In this document: one piece after another, positions 594-64,000 of the stretch
Layout of the letters: each line of letters opens with the position of its first letter
How positions within the stretch are numbered: the stretch's first letter is position 1
Notes under the pieces: model-generated
What the model was told of the DNA's origin: nothing
The model's database searches: none
Seen by the model: the letters and a program-made list of their open reading frames with translations, nothing else
Assembly: GCF_020731145.1 (NCBI RefSeq)
Contig: NZ_JAJFZN010000001.1
Location: 62,001-126,000, forward strand
Source: Sneathiella sp. HT1-7
GTDB taxonomy: Bacteria; Pseudomonadota; Alphaproteobacteria; Sneathiellales; Sneathiellaceae
Length of the DNA stretch: 64,000 bases
Direction of reading: 5' to 3'
Made by a program: the position numbers and the translations under genes

Positions 594-1621
594 CGGATTT
601 CCTTCGCGACCTTAGCCGCCAATTCCCGCATTCGCCAGACATAACCGGTTTCATTGTCATACCAGGAGAGGATTTTGACCTGAGTTTCATCAACAACCAT
701 CGTCGATGGCGCATCAACAATTGAAGAACGACGATCATTGACGAAATCAGCGGAAACGAGCGGGCGCGTTTCATAGCCGAGAATGCCCTCAAGTTCCGCC
801 TCGCTCGCGGCTTTGAAGAAGCTGTTTACTTCTTCCACCGTTGTTGGGCGGGCGACTTCCAATACGCAGTCCGTGATCGACGCATTCAGCAGCGGAACCC
901 TTACCGCGACGCCATTCAGTTTACCTGCAAGCTCCGGATATATCATGGCAATCGCCGTCGCCGAGCCGGTTGATGTAGGAATAAGAGAGTTCAACGCGGA
1001 CCTTGCCCGACGTAAATCCTTATGCGGTGCATCAACAATGATCTGCGTATTAGTGACATCATGAATTGTCGTGATCAGGCCGTGCCGAATGCCGATATTT
1101 TCCTGTATCACTTTAATCAGCGGTGCCAGACAATTCGTGGTGCAGGACGCGTTGGTCAGAATATGATGCGCAGTCGGATCATAGAGATGATCGTTAACGC
1201 CCATCACGATATTTATGTCCGCGTCCTTGACTGGGGCAGCGACGATTACTTTCTTTACACTTCCGGAAAGATAGAGCTGCAACACATCCCGTTTTTTAAA
1301 CTTGCCGGTGCATTCAATAACGATATCAACATCTCGCTCTGCCCAGGGAATCTCGGCCGGATCAGCATGGTCGGAAAATGTCATCGAGAAATCACCGGCT
1401 TTCAGATACGGTTTTTCCCAGAGAACTGGAATGTCGAGATGCCCATGAACACTATCAAACTCGAGCAAATGAGCCGCAGTTTCCGGGCCACCCTTTACTT
1501 CATTGATATGGACAACATCAAAAGCCGGGCCGCTTTCCCTCTCCTTAGCATGTTCCAATGCCGCGCGCAGGAACAACCGCCCCATGCGACCAAACCCGTT
1601 TATCCCAATCCGGACTGCCAT
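590..1621 (-). CDS. ArsJ-associated glyceraldehyde-3-phosphate dehydrogenase
   Basis: This 343-residue protein is a full-length GAPDH. The NAD-binding start reads INGFGRMGR, the catalytic cysteine sits in [11 protein letters not shown], and the C-terminal WYDNETGY motif is present. In arsJ operons this enzyme is known to make 1-arseno-3-phosphoglycerate from glyceraldehyde-3-phosphate, NAD and arsenate, which ArsJ then exports. Context, rather than any single residue, assigns it to arsenic instead of glycolysis: it overlaps arsJ by four bases. The start ATG at 1621 is preceded by a GGTGG-type ribosome site. No ArsR regulator is next to it; the neighbour is a divergent cation exporter 170 bp away. 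A TTGACA-like -35 candidate lies at 1718-1723 (minus strand), but I see no good -10. Confidence 0.92.
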
Positions 1622-1791
1622 TTATTCCACCACTTATGCATACAGATTTGTCCACGCCGCATTTTACTGCGACTGGTGAACTCGCGTCACCCTAGTTTTC
1701 GGATATTACATCTTTATGTCAAAATTCTATGGACAACCAATGTGCCGCCCCTGTCTAATTAGCGGAATTCCTCTCGAAACCGGTCTATTTT

Positions 1792-2730
1792 ATGGCATCA
1801 TCACATTCACATACCGACAGCAAAGCACATAGTCATTCGCATGATCATGCACCGAAAGTAACGGAAGATAGCGAGCGGCGTATTTTCTGGGTTATGTGCC
1901 TAACTGGCGGGTACATGATATTGCAAGCGCTGGGCGGTTTGTTCTCCGGCTCCCTCGCCCTGCTTGCTGATTCCGGGCATATGCTCTCCGATACAGCAGC
2001 GCTTGGCCTCGCGTGGTTTGCCTTTCGCCTGGCTTCCAAACCAGCGGACAGTAAACGTTCCTACGGGTATCACCGCTTTCAGATTCTGGCGGCCTTCACC
2101 AATGGCCTAACCCTTTTCTTCATTGCCGGATGGATCATTTTTGAGGCAGTTGAACGCCTGATGTATCCCGGAGAGGTCATCGGCGGCATGATGCTTGTCA
2201 TCGCATGCGGCGGACTGGTGATCAATATCGTTGGTTTCTATCTGCTCCATCGTGGCGACCGCCATAATGTAAATATGCAGGGCGCCTTGCTGCATGTGAT
2301 GGGGGATTTGTTGGGCTCTGTCGCCGCCATTGTCGCGGCTATCATCATCCTTATGTTCGGATGGATGGCCGCGGACCCCATCCTGTCGATACTGGTTGCG
2401 GTCATTATCCTGAAAAGTGCCTACAGCCTTGTTCGACGGTCCGGCCATATCTTGCTGGAAGGCACACCAGAGAATCTGGACATGATGCTGATTCGGGAAA
2501 AACTGGTCGCGTATATGCCAGAAATCATCGACGTCCACCATATGCATGCCTGGTCCCTTACTGCAGAAAAGCCAATTGTGACTATGCATATTCAAGTTAA
2601 GCCGTCAGCGGATATAAAATCTACGCTACACGCAATCAACGCGTTTTTGCTTTCCGAATTTGAAATTGACCACGCGACATTGCAGCTTGAACATGGCAAT
2701 TGCAGCACCGACGAAATTCTGGAAAAATAG
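1792..2730 (+). CDS. Cation diffusion facilitator (CzcD/ZitB-type zinc exporter)
   Basis: The 312-residue protein has a His-rich cytoplasmic N-terminus (repeated HSH and HDH within the first 20 residues), six predicted membrane helices and a C-terminal cytoplasmic domain. The transport-site motif LADSGHMLSD is in TM2 and HVMGDLLGS in TM5, giving the His/Asp pairs typical of zinc-selective CDF proteins. It likely exports Zn2+ (possibly Co2+ or Cd2+) from the cytoplasm using the proton gradient. It is divergent from the arsenate genes, so the locus looks like a small metal/metalloid resistance patch. Substrate is inferred from the family. Confidence 0.93.
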   Translation: MASSHSHTDSKAHSHSHDHAPKVTEDSERRIFWVMCLTGGYMILQALGGLFSGSLALLADSGHMLSDTAALGLAWFAFRLASKPADSKRSYGYHRFQILAAFTNGLTLFFIAGWIIFEAVERLMYPGEVIGGMMLVIACGGLVINIVGFYLLHRGDRHNVNMQGALLHVMGDLLGSVAAIVAAIIILMFGWMAADPILSILVAVIILKSAYSLVRRSGHILLEGTPENLDMMLIREKLVAYMPEIIDVHHMHAWSLTAEKPIVTMHIQVKPSADIKSTLHAINAFLLSEFEIDHATLQLEHGNCSTDEILEK

Positions 2731-2732
2731 CT

Positions 2733-3140
2733 TTACTGCCAGAGTGGTCGCGCCGCGCTGGCAATGCCTTTTGCTTCTCCCCATGGGCCCGTGCTCATTA
2801 CGGAAAGCCAGCGCATGGGTGCCGGGCTCACAATTCGAACTTCAACCATACTGCCGCGTGTGACTTGTGCGCTCAATCGGGTACTCAGGTTTGATTTTTC
2901 AAGGCTACACCGAATTGCAGCGCCCGGAAGCCAGAATTTTGCGGGCACTTTGCCTTGAATACGATATCGTTTTTCAGGCTTTCCTATAGTCGAAATCCGG
3001 CAATCCCCGGCAAAGGCTGCGCCTAGATCCCCCGAAACTTCCAATGTAATCAAGTCCTGTTTACCCGCAACGACAGGCATGCCCGAAAACTGGGCAAGCA
3101 TCAGCATTACCGCAATCCCTAATTTATGTCTTGTCCGCAT
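2733..3140 (-). CDS. Small secreted protein of unknown function
   Basis: From the ATG at 3140 this gives 135 residues: a basic start (MRTRHKLG), a hydrophobic stretch and a probable signal-peptidase site near PVVAG, then a mature part of about 110 residues with two cysteines (DCRIS and IRCSLE) that could form a disulfide. A longer reading from 3197 is possible but runs into the terminator hairpin at 3171-3204, so I chose the start that gives a clean signal peptide. No strong ribosome site is visible. It ends 2 bp from the convergent cation exporter stop. I do not recognise the family. Confidence 0.6.
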   Translation of the reverse strand: MRTRHKLGIAVMLMLAQFSGMPVVAGKQDLITLEVSGDLGAAFAGDCRISTIGKPEKRYRIQGKVPAKFWLPGAAIRCSLEKSNLSTRLSAQVTRGSMVEVRIVSPAPMRWLSVMSTGPWGEAKGIASAARPLWQ

Positions 3141-3170
3141 GGTGACATCATAAAAAAGCATGGTTAACAA

Positions 3171-3204
3171 AACAAAAACCCGATTGCGGGAAAGCAACCG
3201 GGTT
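3171..3204 (-). terminator. Rho-independent terminator after DUF3126
   Basis: AACCCG (3177-3182) pairs with CGGGTT (3199-3204), extended by TTGC/GCAA across one mismatch. On the minus strand the stem is followed by a T-rich run (A-rich at 3171-3178 on the plus strand). It lies just downstream of the DUF3126 stop and should end the cold-shock/DUF3126 transcript. Confidence 0.8.
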
Positions 3205-3229
3205 CAAAATCGACTGATACTCGATTTCG

Positions 3230-3448
3230 TTAAGAAGTCGACGGCAAATCCATATCAAGTATGGTCATATGAAAAGCGAATGACACTTCGCCTTCATCCT
3301 CATCCCGATAGACAACCCCGATAAATTCATCACCGAGCAGAACCTCAGCCGTTCCATCGGATGGCCGACGCTCTTTGACATTGAACTCTTCATTGCCAAA
3401 TTTTTCCCGCAGGTAGCGCTGCACCTTTAATGTTTCCGTTCTCGTCAT
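3230..3448 (-). CDS. DUF3126 family protein
   Basis: This 72-residue protein matches the small alphaproteobacterial DUF3126 family: an N-terminal helix with LKVQRYLREKFGN, a middle AEVLLGDEFIGVVYRDEDEG and a C-terminal LDMDLP. The function of the family is not known. It lies 16 bp downstream of the double cold-shock gene on the same strand, with a terminator right after its stop, so the two probably share a transcript. The size fits the family. Confidence 0.85.
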   Translation of the reverse strand: MTRTETLKVQRYLREKFGNEEFNVKERRPSDGTAEVLLGDEFIGVVYRDEDEGEVSFAFHMTILDMDLPSTS

Positions 3449-3464
3449 TATGGCCCCGCGTTTC

Positions 3465-3947
3465 TTATAGAATTTCGAGTGAGTCTGCGATCGGTCCTTT
3501 TACGCCCATGCGGACAACACATTTAACCTTGGTATCCAGACCTATATCTTCAAGGTTGATGTCAGAACGCTCCAGCATATTAATGTGGATAAAGACATCC
3601 TCTCCACCACCATCCGGCGTCACAAACCCGTATTTATGTTCGGGAACAAAGGTAGTCACAACACCCGTCACCTCGATATCATTACCGACGACAACCTCTT
3701 CTTCCTCTTCCGGCTCATGAATTGCGACAACCTGCTGGCCGCGATCCCCATCTGCAAGGTCACAATTAATCTGCATACCTTCCCGGAGTTCAGTATAGGA
3801 AGTGTTTTGCAGAACCGAAATATGGACAAAGGCATCTGGAGACCCATCGGCGGGCGAGACAAAACCAAATCCCTTGGCTTCATCGAAAAATTTTACAGTC
3901 GCCGATATATTCTTACGGACGGGCTTGGACGGCTTACGATCATTCAT
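3465..3947 (-). CDS. Cold-shock protein with two tandem cold-shock domains
   Basis: The 160-residue protein carries two CSD OB-folds. The first (about residues 14-75) has KGFGFVSP and DAFVHIS; the second (about 90-157) has KYGFVTP and DVFIHI. These are the RNP1 and RNP2 nucleic-acid-binding motifs. The domains are joined by an acidic EPEEEEEVVV linker. Such double-CSD proteins are common in alphaproteobacteria and bind single-stranded RNA or DNA, probably as RNA chaperones. An AAGGA ribosome site precedes the ATG closely. The 145 bp upstream (3948-4092) are AT-rich with no clear motif. It is followed by DUF3126 and a terminator. Confidence 0.9.
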   Translation of the reverse strand: MNDRKPSKPVRKNISATVKFFDEAKGFGFVSPADGSPDAFVHISVLQNTSYTELREGMQINCDLADGDRGQQVVAIHEPEEEEEVVVGNDIEVTGVVTTFVPEHKYGFVTPDGGGEDVFIHINMLERSDINLEDIGLDTKVKCVVRMGVKGPIADSLEIL

Positions 3948-4092
3948 CCTTAAAGGACCTCATTATTTATAACAAACGGTGCAATACCCAATATAGGGGC
4001 AAAGCTCAAATATTTCCGTGATTTTGTATCAGATCAGAACGCGGCTGTCTGTAGCCTTATTTAATCCGCCGTTCCTAACAGTTTCGCAGTTT

Positions 4093-4854
4093 TCAGATTT
4101 TATTGAATTTGGCCGCGCAGCGGGAGATGCTATGCTGGATTAACCGGACAATTTCTGGGCGGGTTCCGATCGCCCCCGCATAGTGAGCCGGCAGCTTGCT
4201 TCCCGTTTCCCGCTGCCATTCGGCAATCGCGCCGGGCACATCCTCCATCGCGTGCGGCCCGTCCGCTGCGAACAAACCTACAAGGACTAGCGGCGGTCCG
4301 TTCTCAGGTTGATTCTTTAGCCATTGACCGAGGAACGGCGCTTCATTCAGGAAGGCAACAGAAACCCTGGCAAATTCTTGCCTGCTTTCAACCGTCCTCT
4401 GCTGCAGATAGGTCGCCTCGGCAGAGGCACGCGATTTTTCTGAACCGTGGGCGACAAGGACGAGATGAATGTCCACCGGAGCATATCCCTTATCAGCACA
4501 AACTTCCTGTGCCATGGCGGATATTATTCCGGCCAATTCAGGATCAATTCCGAGGGCATCACATTGATACAGCTGGCGATCTGTGCAAATACGCTGCCCC
4601 TCCGTCAACTCAAATAGTTCCGGAATGCGTCGCGCAACAAAATATCCGTTGCTCATAAAGAATGGTAACAGAAAAACTTCTCCGCCCGGCAAATTGGGGG
4701 ATGTGTGATTACCAGCAAGGAAACAAACCCCCACCTGTCCATAGCGATTGCTTTGCTGCAATGTCAACGCATGCTGCTTGGCAGCCTCCTGTGCGTCAAC
4801 CGACACACTGGAACCATGGGCAACTATAAGGACTGACGGACGCGTAGGTGGCAT
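4093..4854 (-). CDS. CbiX/SirB-type sirohydrochlorin chelatase-like protein
   Basis: From the ATG at 4854 this gives 253 residues in two repeated CbiX-type halves, each opening with an AHGS motif (VLIVAHGSS near residue 10 and VLVAHGSEKS near 138). The C-terminal half contains GLFAADGPHAMEDVPGAI, a typical CbiX-family segment. Such proteins insert Co2+ or Fe2+ into sirohydrochlorin for cobalamin or siroheme. A TTG two codons upstream is an alternative start. No cobalamin or siroheme gene is adjacent, so the metal and pathway are not settled by context. Confidence 0.82.
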   Translation of the reverse strand: MPPTRPSVLIVAHGSSVSVDAQEAAKQHALTLQQSNRYGQVGVCFLAGNHTSPNLPGGEVFLLPFFMSNGYFVARRIPELFELTEGQRICTDRQLYQCDALGIDPELAGIISAMAQEVCADKGYAPVDIHLVLVAHGSEKSRASAEATYLQQRTVESRQEFARVSVAFLNEAPFLGQWLKNQPENGPPLVLVGLFAADGPHAMEDVPGAIAEWQRETGSKLPAHYAGAIGTRPEIVRLIQHSISRCAAKFNKI

Positions 4855-59640: not shown

Positions 59641-60816
59641 GTGGAAACCATGGATCATTTGATTCCCGATGTGGCCGCCGTTGACCGGCAACCGGAACTA
59701 CTCGCCATCCGTCAAAGCCTGATAGGGCTCGACCGGAGCGAAATAGCGGGTGCGCTGGCTGAGGCGGGACTGGATGAGAAAACCTCCCGGATGCGGGCGC
59801 GCCAGCTGTTCCACTGGCTTTACTACCGCGGTGCCAGCACTTTCGAGGACATGACCTCGATCTCGAAAGACATGCGCGGTTGGCTACCTGAAAAATTTAC
59901 AGCGGAACGGCCGGAAATTACGTCCCTTCAGGAATCGACTGACGGCACGCGTAAGTGGCTGGTGAAATTTCCGGATGGCCAGGAAGTAGAATCGGTACAT
60001 ATCCCGGAAGAGGATCGCGGTGCGCTTTGCGTATCAAGTCAGGTCGGCTGTACCCTCACTTGCAGTTTCTGTCATACAGGCACCATGAAGCTTGTGCGAA
60101 ACCTGACTGCAGGCGAGATTATCTCCCAGATGCTCGTCGCGCGTGACACGATCAACGAATGGCCAAGCCCGAAGGGCGAACGTATGATCTCCAACATCGT
60201 TATGATGGGTATGGGCGAGCCGCTTCTGAACTACGATAACGTCGCCAAGGCGCTCAAAATCATCATGGATGGTGAGGGTATTTCGCTTTCCAAGCGGCGG
60301 ATCACTCTTTCGACATCCGGCGTCGTTCCAAAAATCCACCAATGCGGCGAAGAGCTTGGCGTCAATCTCGCCATATCACTTCATGCGGTTAACAATGAGG
60401 TGCGCGACATTCTGGTGCCGATCAACAAGCGCTATCCAATCAAGGAACTATTGCAGGCCTGCAAAGAATATCCGGGCAGCAACAATGCGCGCCGGATCAC
60501 ATTCGAATATGTCATGCTGGACGGCATCAATGACAGCCCGGCTGACGCGCGGGAGCTCGTTCGGTTGCTGAAAGACATTCCCGCGAAGGTCAATCTGATC
60601 CCGTTCAACCCTTGGCCCGGTTCGCGATATGAATGCTCCAGTAATAATGCGATGCATCGTTTTGCGAAAATCGTCAATGACGCGGGTTACTCTTCCCCCA
60701 TTCGCGTACCGCGCGGGCGCGATATCATGGCCGCCTGTGGCCAGCTTAAATCTGCAAGCAAGAAAGCCCCCGCGTCTGTGCGTCGCAAAGAATCTGGCGC
60801 TATTGCTAGCCTATAA
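59641..60816 (+). CDS. rlmN: Dual-specificity 23S rRNA/tRNA (adenine-C2) methyltransferase RlmN
   Basis: The 391-residue radical-SAM enzyme has the [11 protein letters not shown] motif (CxxxCxxC) for the 4Fe-4S cluster near residue 140, [14 protein letters not shown], and the C-terminal [12 protein letters not shown] with the methyl-carrying cysteine. It methylates A2503 of 23S rRNA and A37 of several tRNAs. The frame begins at a GTG (59641); an ATG at 59650 is an alternative. It overlaps the convergent GNAT gene by six bases. Confidence 0.96.
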
Positions 60817-61281
60817 CTCAAGCTGCATGGTGATGCTGGTAGGACGATCGTAGCCTTTATGAGCAGTTGTCCCAGTTTGGCGAAAGCCGCGTCGGTGGAA
60901 GAAATCATGCACTTCCTTAAGTTCAACACGTGACTGCAATTCAATCAGCTTTTTTCCTTCAATGCGAGAAAGGTTAATCGCTGCATTCACAAGCGCAAGA
61001 CCAATACCTGATTGCTGTGCCTTCGGGTCAACCGCAAGCTTACCAAGATACATCCTCTCGCCTATATCTTTCAGAAAACAACAGCCAATCAGCTTGCCTT
61101 CCTCTCGCGCTAAAAGAAGCGCTTCCTCCTCTGATTTTTGAATAATTGTGTCTTCATTTAAAAGGTGCAGAGAGGACGGTGGGTCAATGCGAGTTTCCAT
61201 ATAGGCGAATGCATCAAACAGGAGCGCAAGCAACTCCCGCCATTCGACAAAACCCACTTCCTTAACTGCAACCCTTACCAT
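60811..61281 (-). CDS. GNAT family N-acetyltransferase
   Basis: The 156-residue protein has the GNAT fold: [20 protein letters not shown] (strand 4), [20 protein letters not shown] with the Q-x-x-G-I-G acetyl-CoA pyrophosphate loop, and [20 protein letters not shown] near the end. Substrate is unknown. It lies 36 bp upstream of the benE stop region on the same strand and may be transcribed with benE. Confidence 0.88.
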
Positions 61282-61317
61282 CGCTTAATCCCGTGCTTTC
61301 TCAATATTCGCAATAAT

Positions 61318-62490
61318 TTACACTTTTACACGTCCCGTAAAGTGCTTGCGAAAGAGGTAGGCGCACATACCAATAACAATTCCCCAAAAAGGCGCGCCGA
61401 TGGACAGGAGCGTCATACCCGATGCTGTAACGGCAAAGGTCAGGATCGCCGCATCGCGCTCTACCTCCTCCTTGAGAGCGGATTCAAGACTATTGGCGAT
61501 CGTAGACAGAAGGGCAAGCCCGGCAATCGCCATGACGAGCGCCGCCGGAAAGGCTATGAACAAAGCCGTAATCGCCGCGCCAAATAGCCCGGCAAGAATA
61601 TAGAAAACCGATGCCCAGAGCACAGCAGGATACCGCTTTTCCGGATCAGGATGCACATCAGGGCTCATACAAAGGGCCGCCGTGATTGCCGCAAGATTAA
61701 ACGCATACCCCCCGAATGGAGCCAGCAAAACACCTGTGAAACCTGACCAGCCGATCAGGGGAGATGCCGGCGCATCATAGCCATGCCCCCGGAGAACAGC
61801 GATGCCCGGCACATTCTGTGATGCCATTGTCACTATGAAAAGAGGAATCCCCACACCAATCAATGTGGAGATGTCAAAGCTCGGTACTACAAAGACTGGC
61901 AGCGTGAGGGAGAACTCTGCCTCGACCGGGGATATTTGGCCCCCAAAGAATGCAATCGCAACTCCGGTCAGAAGAGTGAGCGGGATAACGTATCGGGGCA
62001 TAAACTGCTTCGCAACGAGGAAAACGAAAACCATCGCACCAACCATGACAACATCTGCCTCCAGCGCGACAAACGCATCCAGACCAAACCGCAACAGGAC
62101 CGCTGCCAGCAAAGCTGAAGCGAGCGATTGCGGCACAAAAGCCATTATCTTCTGAAAAAGCCCAGTAACCCCGCAAAGCGTGAGCAGGACGGAACTGAAA
62201 AGAAACGCACCAATGGCGTCCCCCATCGGTATGCCGGGCAAACTGGTCGCAAGGAGTGCCGCGCCGGGCGTTGACCAGGCAATCAGGATTGGCTGGCGAT
62301 AAAAGAGGGTGAGTCCGATACTGCTGACGCCCATGCCAATCCCGACCGCCCAGAGCCAAGAACTGATCTGATCCGGTGTCGCGCCTGCCGCATTTGCCGC
62401 CTGAAAGACAATCGCCCCCGCACCGGCATAGCCGACCAGTACGGCGACAAAGCCTGCGGAAATGTAGCTCGGAGAGAAATAGCGGAGCAT
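61318..62490 (-). CDS. BenE family (benzoate/H+ symporter-like) transporter
   Basis: The 390-residue hydrophobic protein has the BenE hallmark segments SAGFVAVLVGYAGAGAIVFQ, LIAWSTPGAALLATSLPGI and APFGGYAFNLAAITAALCMS, with about 12 membrane helices. BenE was described as a benzoate:proton symporter; many homologues lack aromatic genes and their substrate is unknown, as here. It is divergent from an XRE/cupin regulator, and two palindromic operators lie between them. Confidence 0.93.
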   Translation of the reverse strand: MLRYFSPSYISAGFVAVLVGYAGAGAIVFQAANAAGATPDQISSWLWAVGIGMGVSSIGLTLFYRQPILIAWSTPGAALLATSLPGIPMGDAIGAFLFSSVLLTLCGVTGLFQKIMAFVPQSLASALLAAVLLRFGLDAFVALEADVVMVGAMVFVFLVAKQFMPRYVIPLTLLTGVAIAFFGGQISPVEAEFSLTLPVFVVPSFDISTLIGVGIPLFIVTMASQNVPGIAVLRGHGYDAPASPLIGWSGFTGVLLAPFGGYAFNLAAITAALCMSPDVHPDPEKRYPAVLWASVFYILAGLFGAAITALFIAFPAALVMAIAGLALLSTIANSLESALKEEVERDAAILTFAVTASGMTLLSIGAPFWGIVIGMCAYLFRKHFTGRVKV

Positions 62491-62516
62491 TTTGATCTAT
62501 ACCTTCCAACATAGTA

Positions 62517-62530
62517 TGCGTTATAACGCA
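62517..62530. promoter_or_regulatory. Palindromic operator 1 between benE and its regulator
   Basis: TGCGTTATAACGCA is a perfect 14-base palindrome, 27 bp upstream of benE. It includes a TATAAC/GTTATA that could double as a -10 on either strand. It is nearly identical to operator 2, with centres 38 bp apart. Confidence 0.75.
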
Positions 62531-62555
62531 CAAGCAACGCCAAACTAACAGATGT

Positions 62556-62567
62556 GCGTTATAACGC
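62556..62567. promoter_or_regulatory. Palindromic operator 2 between benE and its regulator
   Basis: GCGTTATAACGC is a perfect 12-base palindrome, 22 bp upstream of the regulator ATG, and repeats the core of operator 1. Two copies between divergent genes strongly suggest binding sites for the XRE/cupin regulator, which would control both benE and itself. Confidence 0.75.
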
Positions 62568-62588
62568 TCAAGAAAAAATGGACGCATT

Positions 62589-63155
62589 ATGCAGGAACTG
62601 AAAAATCACCTTTCAACAACCCTCAAGCATCTTCGCAAAAATCGCGGCTGGAGCCTGGATGCTACCGCCGCGGCTACTGGCGTGAGCAAAGCCATGTTGG
62701 GACAAATCGAACGAGGCGAATCGAGCCCGACAACCGCCGTCCTATGGAAGCTGGCGACGGGATTTCAGGTTTCCATCTCTTCCCTGATGGAACCGCTACC
62801 CGAAATCTCGGCGGATACTGTTATTCGAGACGCTGAAGAAATCCGCAATATTCCCGGCGATAAGGGCATGGCCGTTGCCCCGCTTTTCCCGTTTGAACCG
62901 CGCTTCGGCTTTGACCTGATGGAGCTTACCTTCCTTCCCGGATATGAGCGCGTATCAGAGCCGCATGAACCGGGCGTTATCGAACATATTACTGTCATGT
63001 CCGGAAAAATGGAGATTCTGACCGACGATATCTGGCAGAAACTTGAAAAAGGGCAGACAATACGCTTTCGTGGGGACAAGCCTCATGGGTATCGGAATCG
63101 GAACGATGAAAAGGCCGTTACGCTTTCAGTGATCCACTATCCGCATCGTACCTGA
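62589..63155 (+). CDS. XRE-family regulator with cupin domain
   Basis: The 188-residue protein has an N-terminal helix-turn-helix (LKHLRKNRGWSLDATAAATG, VSKAMLGQIERGESSPTTAV) and a C-terminal cupin with PHEPGVIEHITVMSGKMEIL and IRFRGDKPHGYRN. It likely senses a small ligand through the cupin and represses the divergent benE gene and itself through the twin palindromes. No strong ribosome site is visible; the ATG at 62589 gives the usual family N-terminus. Confidence 0.92.
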   Translation: MQELKNHLSTTLKHLRKNRGWSLDATAAATGVSKAMLGQIERGESSPTTAVLWKLATGFQVSISSLMEPLPEISADTVIRDAEEIRNIPGDKGMAVAPLFPFEPRFGFDLMELTFLPGYERVSEPHEPGVIEHITVMSGKMEILTDDIWQKLEKGQTIRFRGDKPHGYRNRNDEKAVTLSVIHYPHRT

Positions 63156-63255
63156 AATATGCGGAAATCTGCCCCTTGCGAAGCCTTTACTTTTCCCCTA
63201 GTTTGCGCGCTGCAAAGTTGCCTGAATAACAGATTCCCTATTGAGGTCCCCAGTT

Positions 63256-64000
63256 ATGTCCCAAGAAATCAAAAAAGTCGTTCTCGCCTATTCCGGCGGT
63301 CTTGATACTTCCGTCATTCTGAAATGGCTTCAGACGACCTACAATTGCGAAGTTGTCACTTTTACGGCTGACTTAGGTCAGGGCGAGGAACTGGAACCGG
63401 CCCGCGCCAAAGCAGAGATGATGGGTATCAAGGAAATCTATGTGGATGATCTGCGCGAAGAATTCGTGCGTGATTTTGTCTTTCCTATGTTCCGCGCAAA
63501 TGCGGTGTATGAAGGTCAGTATCTCCTTGGTACTTCCATCGCACGGCCGCTGATTTCAAAACGGCAGATCGAGATTGCGAAAGAGGTCGGCGCCGATGCC
63601 GTTGCCCATGGCGCAACCGGTAAAGGGAACGACCAGGTCCGGTTCGAGCTTGGCTATTACGCGCTTGATCCCGATATCAAGGTTATTTCCCCCTGGCGGG
63701 AATGGGACCTTAACTCCCGCACCAAACTGATTGACTTCGCCGAAAAGAACCAGATCCCCATCCCGAAGGACAAGCGCGGCGAAGCTCCATTCTCGGTCGA
63801 TGCGAACCTCCTCCATATCTCGGCGGAAGGCAAGGCATTGGAAGACCCATGGGAAGAAGCCGGGGAGTATGTCTATTCGCGCACAGTAGCGCCGGAAGAT
63901 GCGCCGGACATCCCAACCTATATCGAGGTTGAGTATGAAAAAGGCGATCCGGTTGCCGTTGACGGCAAACGGATGAGCCCGGCGGAATTATTAACCGCAC
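63256..64000 (+). CDS. argG: Argininosuccinate synthase (partial, C-terminus outside window)
   Basis: The ATG at 63256 opens 248 codons that run off the right edge. The ATP-pyrophosphatase P-loop [19 protein letters not shown] is at the start, followed by [15 protein letters not shown] and [20 protein letters not shown], both typical of ArgG. It joins citrulline and aspartate in arginine synthesis. The 100 bp before it contain no clear promoter. Confidence 0.96.

What the first reader, a model, noticed from the sequence alone, without database searches (positions are those of the whole stretch)
62491..62588. Twin palindromic operators between benE and an XRE/cupin regulator
TGCGTTATAACGCA and GCGTTATAACGC occur 38 bp apart (centre to centre), each containing a TATAAC that may overlap a -10 on either strand. 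This is a clear, compact regulatory circuit for a transporter whose substrate is unknown. The motif can be used to find other targets of the regulator and hence the substrate.
Basis: partly seen in the sequence, partly recalled or inferred. Interest (0 to 1): 0.5.

Follow-up and report, generated by a model that had tools for sequence, protein, structure and literature searches.

The report
Twin operators of a SutR-type regulator
Two matching palindromes between a BenE-type transporter gene and its regulator gene are very probably the docking sites of that regulator, a switch kept from Alphaproteobacteria to E. coli and Vibrio, and in some other bacteria the same switch faces amino-acid enzymes or tRNA-proofreading genes instead, which hints at what it senses.

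Summary
In detail: two GCGTTATAACGC palindromes lie 38 bp apart at 62518-62529 and 62556-62567, the only exact copies in the 3.83 Mb genome. They look like true operators. The gene pair is orthologous to E. coli ydcO/sutR (48% and 46% identity), which has the same pair of sites with 1-2 mismatches. Of 80 related loci, 79 hold twin sites (reversed motif 0 of 80; shuffles 0 of 1600). A gene-blind scan for the twin pattern finds it beside a SutR-like regulator in 18 of 19 genomes. Regulators with an SKAMLGQIER-type helix have twin sites in 153 of 157 cases, others in 0 of 18. Full operator: TTGTGCGYTATARCGCACAA. The benE -10 probably lies between the sites, not inside them. No second target is visible in the own genome, so that route to the substrate fails. 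Other genomes help: in Legionella relatives the same operator faces DUF2000/YbaK-like/AlaX-like genes, in rhizobia a PLP lyase-like enzyme, and the crystallised Vibrio orthologue (1Y9Q) reportedly held D-methionine. An amino-acid-like effector is my leading inference; binding and repression were not tested.

The parts
62514..62533 (.). Operator site 1 (benE-proximal), GTATGCGTTATAACGCACAA, core 62518-62529
   Evidence: fits the 20-bp consensus TTGTGCGYTATARCGCACAA of 99 BenE-type regions
62552..62571 (.). Operator site 2 (regulator-proximal), ATGTGCGTTATAACGCTCAA, core 62556-62567
   Evidence: same consensus
62566..62571 (-). Predicted -35 of the benE promoter (TTGAGC), the outer flank of site 2
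   Evidence: inference from conserved spacing; window letters checked; the plain sigma-70 scan found no promoter here
62542..62547 (-). Predicted -10 of the benE promoter (TAGTTT, preceded by TGT), between the two sites, 18-bp spacer across site 2
   Evidence: inference
61318..62490 (-). BenE-family transporter, 390 aa, orthologue of E. coli YdcO
   Evidence: PF03594 487 bits, TIGR00843 439 bits over cut-off 203, 48% identity to YdcO over 390 aligned positions
62589..63155 (+). XRE HTH_3 + Cupin_2 regulator, 188 aa, orthologue of E. coli SutR (YdcN)
   Evidence: 46% identity to SutR; best solved relative 1y9q_A, E 1.5e-45
60811..61281 (-). GNAT N-acetyltransferase 36 bp behind benE, likely on the same transcript
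   Evidence: PF00583; a related gene is in 5 of the 80 scanned loci (L034, L035, L036, L039, L040); co-transcription is inferred

Best explanation
This is the divergent control region of a SutR-type local regulatory pair. A homodimer of the XRE/cupin regulator binds each 20-bp palindrome (TTGTGCGYTATARCGCACAA). Site 2 lies across the spacer of the benE promoter and touches its -35; site 1 lies just downstream of the predicted start. With both occupied, RNA polymerase is kept off benE and probably off the regulator's own promoter (autorepression). A small molecule bound in the cupin domain, most likely a neutral or sulfur-containing amino acid or an analogue, releases the regulator, and the BenE-type transporter (with the GNAT behind it here) is made to export, import or neutralise that molecule. 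SHOWN by computation: the sites, their conservation, the link with the recognition helix, a single visible target region in this genome, and the orthology with SutR/YdcO. INFERRED: binding, dimer use, repression, promoter positions, effector identity and direction of transport. The confidence given is for the operator-plus-SutR-type-regulator reading; for the amino-acid effector alone I would say about 0.4.
For: Twin sites in 23 of 23 same-genus loci holding a close orthologue, own locus included, and in 79 of the 80 loci kept by the genome-contig scan, controls 0. Same pair of sites between ydcO and sutR in E. coli K-12. Blind pattern scans: 14 of 398 and 7 of 369 genomes (2 shared, so 19 distinct, own genome included); 18 of 19 lie beside a SutR-like regulator. 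Recognition helix: 153 of 157 against 0 of 18. Conserved promoter-like element between the sites. The chain closest in the PDB, 1y9q, is encoded (100% identity over 173 residues) beside BenE with twin sites, as are 30 of the 30 loci fetched in that search; PMC7901475 reports D-methionine in its cupin pocket, PMC2684688 lists it as a dimer with Zn (one passage). XRE-cupin regulators of Pseudomonas are described as local repressors, and palindromic motifs are reported for PsdR, PauR and ErfA (PMC7901475: section 8 read whole, passages of others). The alternative payloads are amino-acid or tRNA-editing themed. BenA over cut-off in 0 of 24 genus genomes.
Against: No binding or expression data for this organism. 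E. coli SutR is annotated as a dual regulator and 15 gSELEX interactions are curated for it (PMC6094552), more than the single target region seen here. D-methionine in 1Y9Q may be a crystallisation or culture leftover. The amino-acid theme rests on alternative payloads in other lineages, whose regulators may sense other ligands. In P. putida a Cro/CI regulator, PP_3125, represses a benE operon with a fluoride-tolerance phenotype (PMC13104614, abstract and passages), a different substrate idea. The standard promoter scan found nothing. Four regulators with the matching helix lack a recognisable twin (L094, L142, L152, L158), and one of 19 blind hits has no SutR-like gene beside it (L224).
Confidence: 0.85

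Rival explanations
1. The regulator binds both sites but acts as an activator or dual regulator of benE rather than a simple repressor, as the E. coli annotation 'dual regulator' suggests.
For: E. coli SutR is annotated as DNA-binding transcriptional dual regulator; the predicted benE -35/-10 is weak (TTGAGC, TAGTTT), as in activator-dependent promoters.
Against: Site 2 covers the spacer and site 1 the start region of the predicted promoter, a geometry that fits blocking; the XRE-cupin relatives studied in Pseudomonas are described as repressors (PMC7901475).
Confidence: 0.2
2. BenE here takes up benzoate (its family name) and the regulator senses benzoate or another aromatic acid.
For: PF03594 and TIGR00843 matches over cut-off.
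Against: Benzoate dioxygenase BenA reaches its cut-off in 0 of 24 genus genomes, though 7 of 24 have weaker matches and the own genome none at 1e-20; under the same operator BenE is replaced by amino-acid or tRNA-editing genes. Other benzoate routes were not searched.
Confidence: 0.1
3. The transporter relieves fluoride or another inorganic stress, as reported for P. putida BenE-I under PP_3125.
For: PMC13104614 abstract and passages: loss of a Cro/CI regulator raises benE-I and fluoride tolerance.
Against: Whether PP_3125 is of the SutR type was not tested; tRNA-editing and PLP-lyase-like payloads do not suggest fluoride (inference).
Confidence: 0.08
4. The palindromes are chance, bind an unrelated factor, or act as RNA hairpins.
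For: Single 12-bp palindromes are common (18 in the window); 1 of 19 blind hits (L224) has no SutR-like gene beside it.
Against: 79 of 80 against 0 in controls; helix correlation; no Rfam match in 61200-63300; no terminator-like hit in 62400-62700.
Confidence: 0.02

Closest known systems
E. coli K-12 ydcO-sutR (ydcN)
   Same: Same divergent gene pair, 48% and 46% identity, and two copies of the same palindrome between the genes
   Different: Spacing 32 bp instead of 38; sites GCGTTATAGCGT and CCGTTATAACGC carry 2 and 1 mismatches; SutR is credited with sulfur utilisation (title of Yamamoto 2015, not held; seen only as a citation) and with 15 gSELEX interactions, whereas here one target region is visible
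Vibrio cholerae HTH_3 regulator of PDB 1Y9Q
   Same: Closest solved relative; its gene lies beside a divergent BenE with two sites 33 bp apart
Pseudomonas XRE-cupin repressors (PauR, PsdR, ErfA, PA1884 and others; PMC7901475)
   Same: HTH + cupin; local, specialised; palindromic motifs for the three with a motif; amino-acid or small-molecule targets, including a GNAT (PA1885) and an RhtA-like transporter (PA1360)
   Different: The paper says the three consensus sequences are quite different from each other; I did not compare them letter by letter with this one
E. coli PuuR
   Same: XRE-cupin architecture; NCBIfam NF007408 aligns over 172 residues
   Different: 32 bits against a cut-off of 211: not a PuuR

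Membership tests
SutR (YdcN) - BenE (YdcO) divergent pair | HTH_3 plus cupin regulator clearly orthologous to SutR | tested here: met
   46% identity over a 185-position alignment; same large branch of the tree (158 rows), away from 17 operator-less relatives (FastTree)
SutR (YdcN) - BenE (YdcO) divergent pair | BenE-family gene divergently transcribed next to it | tested here: met
   61318-62490 minus; PF03594, 48% identity to YdcO
SutR (YdcN) - BenE (YdcO) divergent pair | Shared operator between the two genes | tested here: met
   as sequence, not as binding
SutR (YdcN) - BenE (YdcO) divergent pair | Control of sulfur-utilisation genes elsewhere in the genome | tested here: inconclusive
   only the two local sites at up to 3 mismatches in the own genome; this tests sites of this sequence, not binding or expression
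XRE-cupin local repressors (Trouillon 2021 sense) | XRE and cupin domains, palindromic site, target next to the regulator gene | tested here: met
XRE-cupin local repressors (Trouillon 2021 sense) | Repression relieved by a small molecule | not testable with these tools
   needs expression and binding assays
Benzoate importer BenE | Sequence family | tested here: met
   TIGR00843 439 bits, cut-off 203
Benzoate importer BenE | Genome can degrade benzoate through benzoate 1,2-dioxygenase | tested here: not met
   TIGR03229 over cut-off in 0 of 24 genus genomes; weaker matches in 7 of 24, none in the own genome at 1e-20
Benzoate importer BenE | Transports benzoate | not testable with these tools
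   needs an uptake assay
PuuR | NCBIfam equivalog score | tested here: not met
   32 bits, cut-off 211

The most novel reading that the evidence does not exclude
The SutR-type operator is a conserved 'amino-acid hazard' switch with exchangeable payloads: one sensor and one twin operator, kept while the output changed from a BenE-type transporter (export or clearance) to free-standing tRNA-editing enzymes plus DUF2000 (Legionellales and small-genome Alphaproteobacteria) or to a PLP ammonia-lyase-like enzyme (rhizobia). If so, many 'benzoate transporters' of this branch, YdcO included, move a sulfur or non-protein amino acid, and the DUF2000/YbaK-like/AlaX-like set clears tRNAs mischarged with it.
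Probability: 0.35. Interest if true: 0.7.

Novelty: new member of a known kind. Interest (0 to 1): 0.48.

Why it matters
It fixes a sharp, testable operator (TTGTGCGYTATARCGCACAA, twice, 34-39 bp apart in 102 of 123 distinct regions) for a widespread regulator known to me mainly from E. coli SutR, and it narrows the question of what SutR senses and YdcO/BenE moves. Because the operator stays while the controlled genes change, the alternative payloads act as a natural experiment on the ligand: they point to an amino acid rather than to benzoate. It also gives DUF2000 (the word is in no paper of the searched library) a context beside tRNA-editing proteins.

Tried and rejected
Other targets in the own genome: none at up to 3 mismatches of the 18-mer; with the 12-mer, 8 further one-mismatch places and 123 places in all at up to 2 mismatches against 339 for the reversed control (the listing is capped), so no signal. 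Extra sites in the genus: G020 C12 (a perfect 18-mer, but inside an ORF), G020 C22 (upstream of a malic-enzyme-like gene; that name is my reading of the sequence, not a scan) and G002 C154; none recurs in other genomes at up to 2 mismatches, so I give them no weight. TATAAC as -10: set aside in favour of the element between the sites. Plain promoter/terminator scan and Rfam: nothing. Neighbour genes as substrate clue: clustering of ORFs in the 80 loci gave, besides regulator, BenE and the tRNA-editing set, nothing in more than 8 loci (the 8-locus cluster overlaps the regulator on the other strand; a LysR-like cluster, my reading, is in 7); the clusters were not scanned for families, so no claim about ben/cat neighbours is made. 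Bacillota relatives (L157, L158): no such operator. L224, one of 7 blind hits, lies by other genes. L094 and L142 have one recognisable site; L152 and L158 none. Papers: the SutR paper itself is not held; ten searches used; I saw no description of this twin operator or of the payload exchange in their listings or in the passages opened. No structure prediction and no fold search was run.

Slips and mends: minus-strand loci were read in the wrong orientation and looked site-less; corrected. In some searches three of 123 regions (L009, L013, L116) were still turned round; one search recounts with the orientation fixed by the regulator gene (promoter element 82 of 99 instead of 79), and its numbers are the ones given. 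L072 was scanned with wrong coordinates (error); its PLP-enzyme label, like that of L159, rests on tblastn.

Full report
WHAT IS THERE. Window 62491-62588 is the 98-bp gap between two divergent genes: benE (62490 to 61318, minus) and an XRE/cupin regulator (62589 to 63155, plus). It holds GCGTTATAACGC at 62518-62529 and at 62556-62567. The window has 18 perfect 12-bp palindromes, as many as shuffles give (mean 18.7), so one palindrome means little; but it has one identical pair within 100 bp, and 60 dinucleotide shuffles had none. In the whole genome (3,830,890 bases) the 12-mer occurs exactly twice, here.

WHO THE GENES ARE. The regulator has HTH_3 and Cupin_2 domains; the transporter matches BenE (PF03594, 487 bits; TIGR00843, 439 bits, cut-off 203). 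The E. coli K-12 stretch with ydcO and sutR has the same divergent arrangement; identities are 48% for BenE/YdcO and 46% for the regulator/SutR. Named relatives place the window in or near Sneathiella (Alphaproteobacteria): the three best rows are Sneathiella records at 82-89% identity.

CONSERVATION. Between ydcO and sutR, E. coli carries GCGTTATAGCGT and CCGTTATAACGC 32 bp apart (record positions 1506092 and 1506124). In the own genus, 24 genomes were examined (own included); 23 have a close orthologue and all 23 have twin sites at no more than one mismatch to RCGYTATARCGY each. The 24th, G005, 66% complete, has only a 35% relative of the regulator, and no site and no BenE. In the 300 bp upstream of the regulator, 80 of 80 have at least one site and 79 of 80 have two at 20-50 bp. 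The reversed consensus gives 3 of 80 and no pair; shuffled upstream regions give 22 of 1600 and no pair. Over all loci gathered by then, after removing identical regions, 123 distinct two-site regions remain: 99 with BenE as nearest recognised divergent gene, 14 with DUF2000, 5 with the YbaK-like gene, 4 with a PLP enzyme, 1 with none of these. Spacing is 25-48 bp, 34-39 in 102 of 123. The consensus of the 99 BenE-type regions extends to 20 bp, TTGTGCGYTATARCGCACAA; the outermost T/A pairs are the weakest (46-92% per column).

SPECIFICITY. A scan with the twin pattern alone, blind to genes, hit 14 of 398 phylum genomes, own included (reversed control: 1 genome), and all 14 lie between a BenE and a SutR-like gene. 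A second scan of 369 genomes with a wider gap hit 7 (control 0 in the listed rows): 5 beside BenE and SutR-like, 1 beside DUF2000, AlaX-like and SutR-like, 1 (L224) beside neither. Two genomes are in both scans, so 18 of 19 distinct genomes agree. Among 175 distinct regulators, those with the helix SKAM[LI]GQ[IV]ER have twin sites in 153 of 157; the other 18 have none. Close orthologues were gathered on purpose, so the 157 are not independent; on the tree the twin-site state changes 4 times. Still, this helix goes with this DNA.

PROMOTER. Between the sites, 82 of 99 BenE-type regions have TGNTA on the benE strand (shuffled mean 6.6, maximum 17, over 200 rounds); in 77 of the 82 it puts a -10 hexamer TANNNN (ending in T in 73 of 77) 17 or 18 bp from the hexamer on the outer flank of site 2, which is TTGTGC, TTGTAC or TTGAGC in 75 of the 77 (which corrects). 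In the window: -35 TTGAGC 62566-62571, 18-bp spacer, TGT, -10 TAGTTT 62542-62547, all minus. So site 2 spans the spacer, and site 1 sits just past the expected start near 62535. The -35 hexamer is part of the operator, so its conservation is not independent evidence of a promoter; the TGNTA element is. The standard sigma-70 scan reports nothing here. The regulator's own promoter I could not place; the same element read on the other strand (TARCA, 66 of 99, shuffled mean 3.8) may serve it.

LOCAL, ONE VISIBLE TARGET. The 18-mer TGTGCGYTATARCGCACA with up to 3 mismatches finds only these two places in the own genome (control 5). In 24 genus genomes at up to 2 mismatches 23 have a match; the places are this locus except two in G020 and one in G002, which do not recur. 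One BenE per genome in 23 of 24, at this locus.

WHAT IT SENSES: PAYLOAD EXCHANGE. Where BenE is missing, the same operator and regulator face other genes. In Legionella, Tatlockia and others: DUF2000 (PF09391), a tRNA_edit/YbaK-like protein (PF04073) and an AlaX-like protein (PF07973), not all three in every locus (the three in a row on a Legionella anisa plasmid; DUF2000 without the others on a L. adelaidensis plasmid). In small-genome Alphaproteobacteria (G774, G808, G992) DUF2000 or the YbaK-like gene comes first. In Sinorhizobium, Rhizobium and Bosea: a PLP enzyme, in the two scanned (L062, L066) nearest to threonine/serine dehydratase models but below their cut-offs. A more distant Bacillota regulator without this operator faces a 'cysteine synthase family' gene. 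One alphaproteobacterial second copy (L152/L191, no recognisable site) precedes a YheO-like regulator, an aminotransferase and an ornithine-cyclodeaminase-family gene. On the regulator tree (FastTree, 175 rows, 55 of 172 inner branches open) the three payload types need 3 changes. The common theme, as I read it, is amino acids and mischarged tRNA.

A STRUCTURE. The best PDB match is 1y9q_A (E 1.5e-45; profile 4.7e-56). Of 196 genomes of one genus, 83 have a match at 1e-35 or better and one encodes that chain at 100% identity; its gene lies 111 bp from a divergent BenE and has two sites 33 bp apart. The 30 best loci, all that were fetched, all have BenE and at least two sites at no more than one mismatch. 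PMC7901475 (section 8 read whole, passages of other sections) states that the Vibrio cholerae structure has D-methionine bound in the cupin pocket; PMC2684688 (one passage) lists it as a dimer with Zn. H126, E132 and H166 of the window protein are invariant in the six-row alignment; calling them metal ligands is my inference. With the name SutR (sulfur utilisation; only citations of Yamamoto 2015 seen), this makes a sulfur or neutral amino acid the leading effector candidate. A leftover from crystallisation is possible.

BENZOATE? Benzoate dioxygenase BenA (TIGR03229) reaches its cut-off in 0 of 24 genus genomes; 7 of 24 have weaker matches, the own genome none at 1e-20. The family name 'benzoate transporter' should not be read as substrate.

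VERDICT. A real and well-conserved twin operator of a SutR-type regulator: a new member, in Sneathiella, of a known kind. I did not see the operator's breadth, its cognate helix or the payload exchange described in the ten paper searches (calls listed under tried and rejected), but the E. coli SutR literature could be seen only in part, and a palindromic ChIP-exo motif for YdcN is reported (PMC8464067, passages only; its letters are in a figure).

Noticed in passing
window 60811-61281: GNAT acetyltransferase 36 bp behind benE on the same strand; a related gene is in 5 of 80 loci. A GNAT is also the single target of the Pseudomonas XRE-cupin regulator PA1884 (PMC7901475).
   Followed up: partly
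L089 1326-2908; L156 3333-4896; L193 6245-7143: DUF2000 recurs with YbaK-like and AlaX-like tRNA-editing genes under the SutR-type operator; the word DUF2000 is in no paper of the library.
   Followed up: partly
L191 2381-5641: A second SutR-like copy in a small-genome alphaproteobacterium (G808) heads a run of YheO-like regulator, aminotransferase and ornithine-cyclodeaminase-family genes, without a recognisable operator.
   Followed up: partly
L160 (Alteromonas macleodii plasmid) 712-4510: Twin operator and regulator kept on a plasmid where the stretch shows no BenE and a Tn3-family transposase gene stands next to them.
   Followed up: no
L188 4791-4808: A perfect 18-bp operator-like palindrome, extended by flanking symmetry, inside an ORF of G020; no explanation.
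   Followed up: partly
L224 1501-1545: Two palindromes of the ACGYTATARCGT kind, arranged nearly as one large inverted repeat, beside an aldehyde-dehydrogenase-like gene (name from reading the sequence), with no SutR-like gene; perhaps another factor.
   Followed up: no
upstream regions of L015, L017, L018, L063 and L137: Three operator copies instead of two, at steps of 25-40 bp.
   Followed up: no
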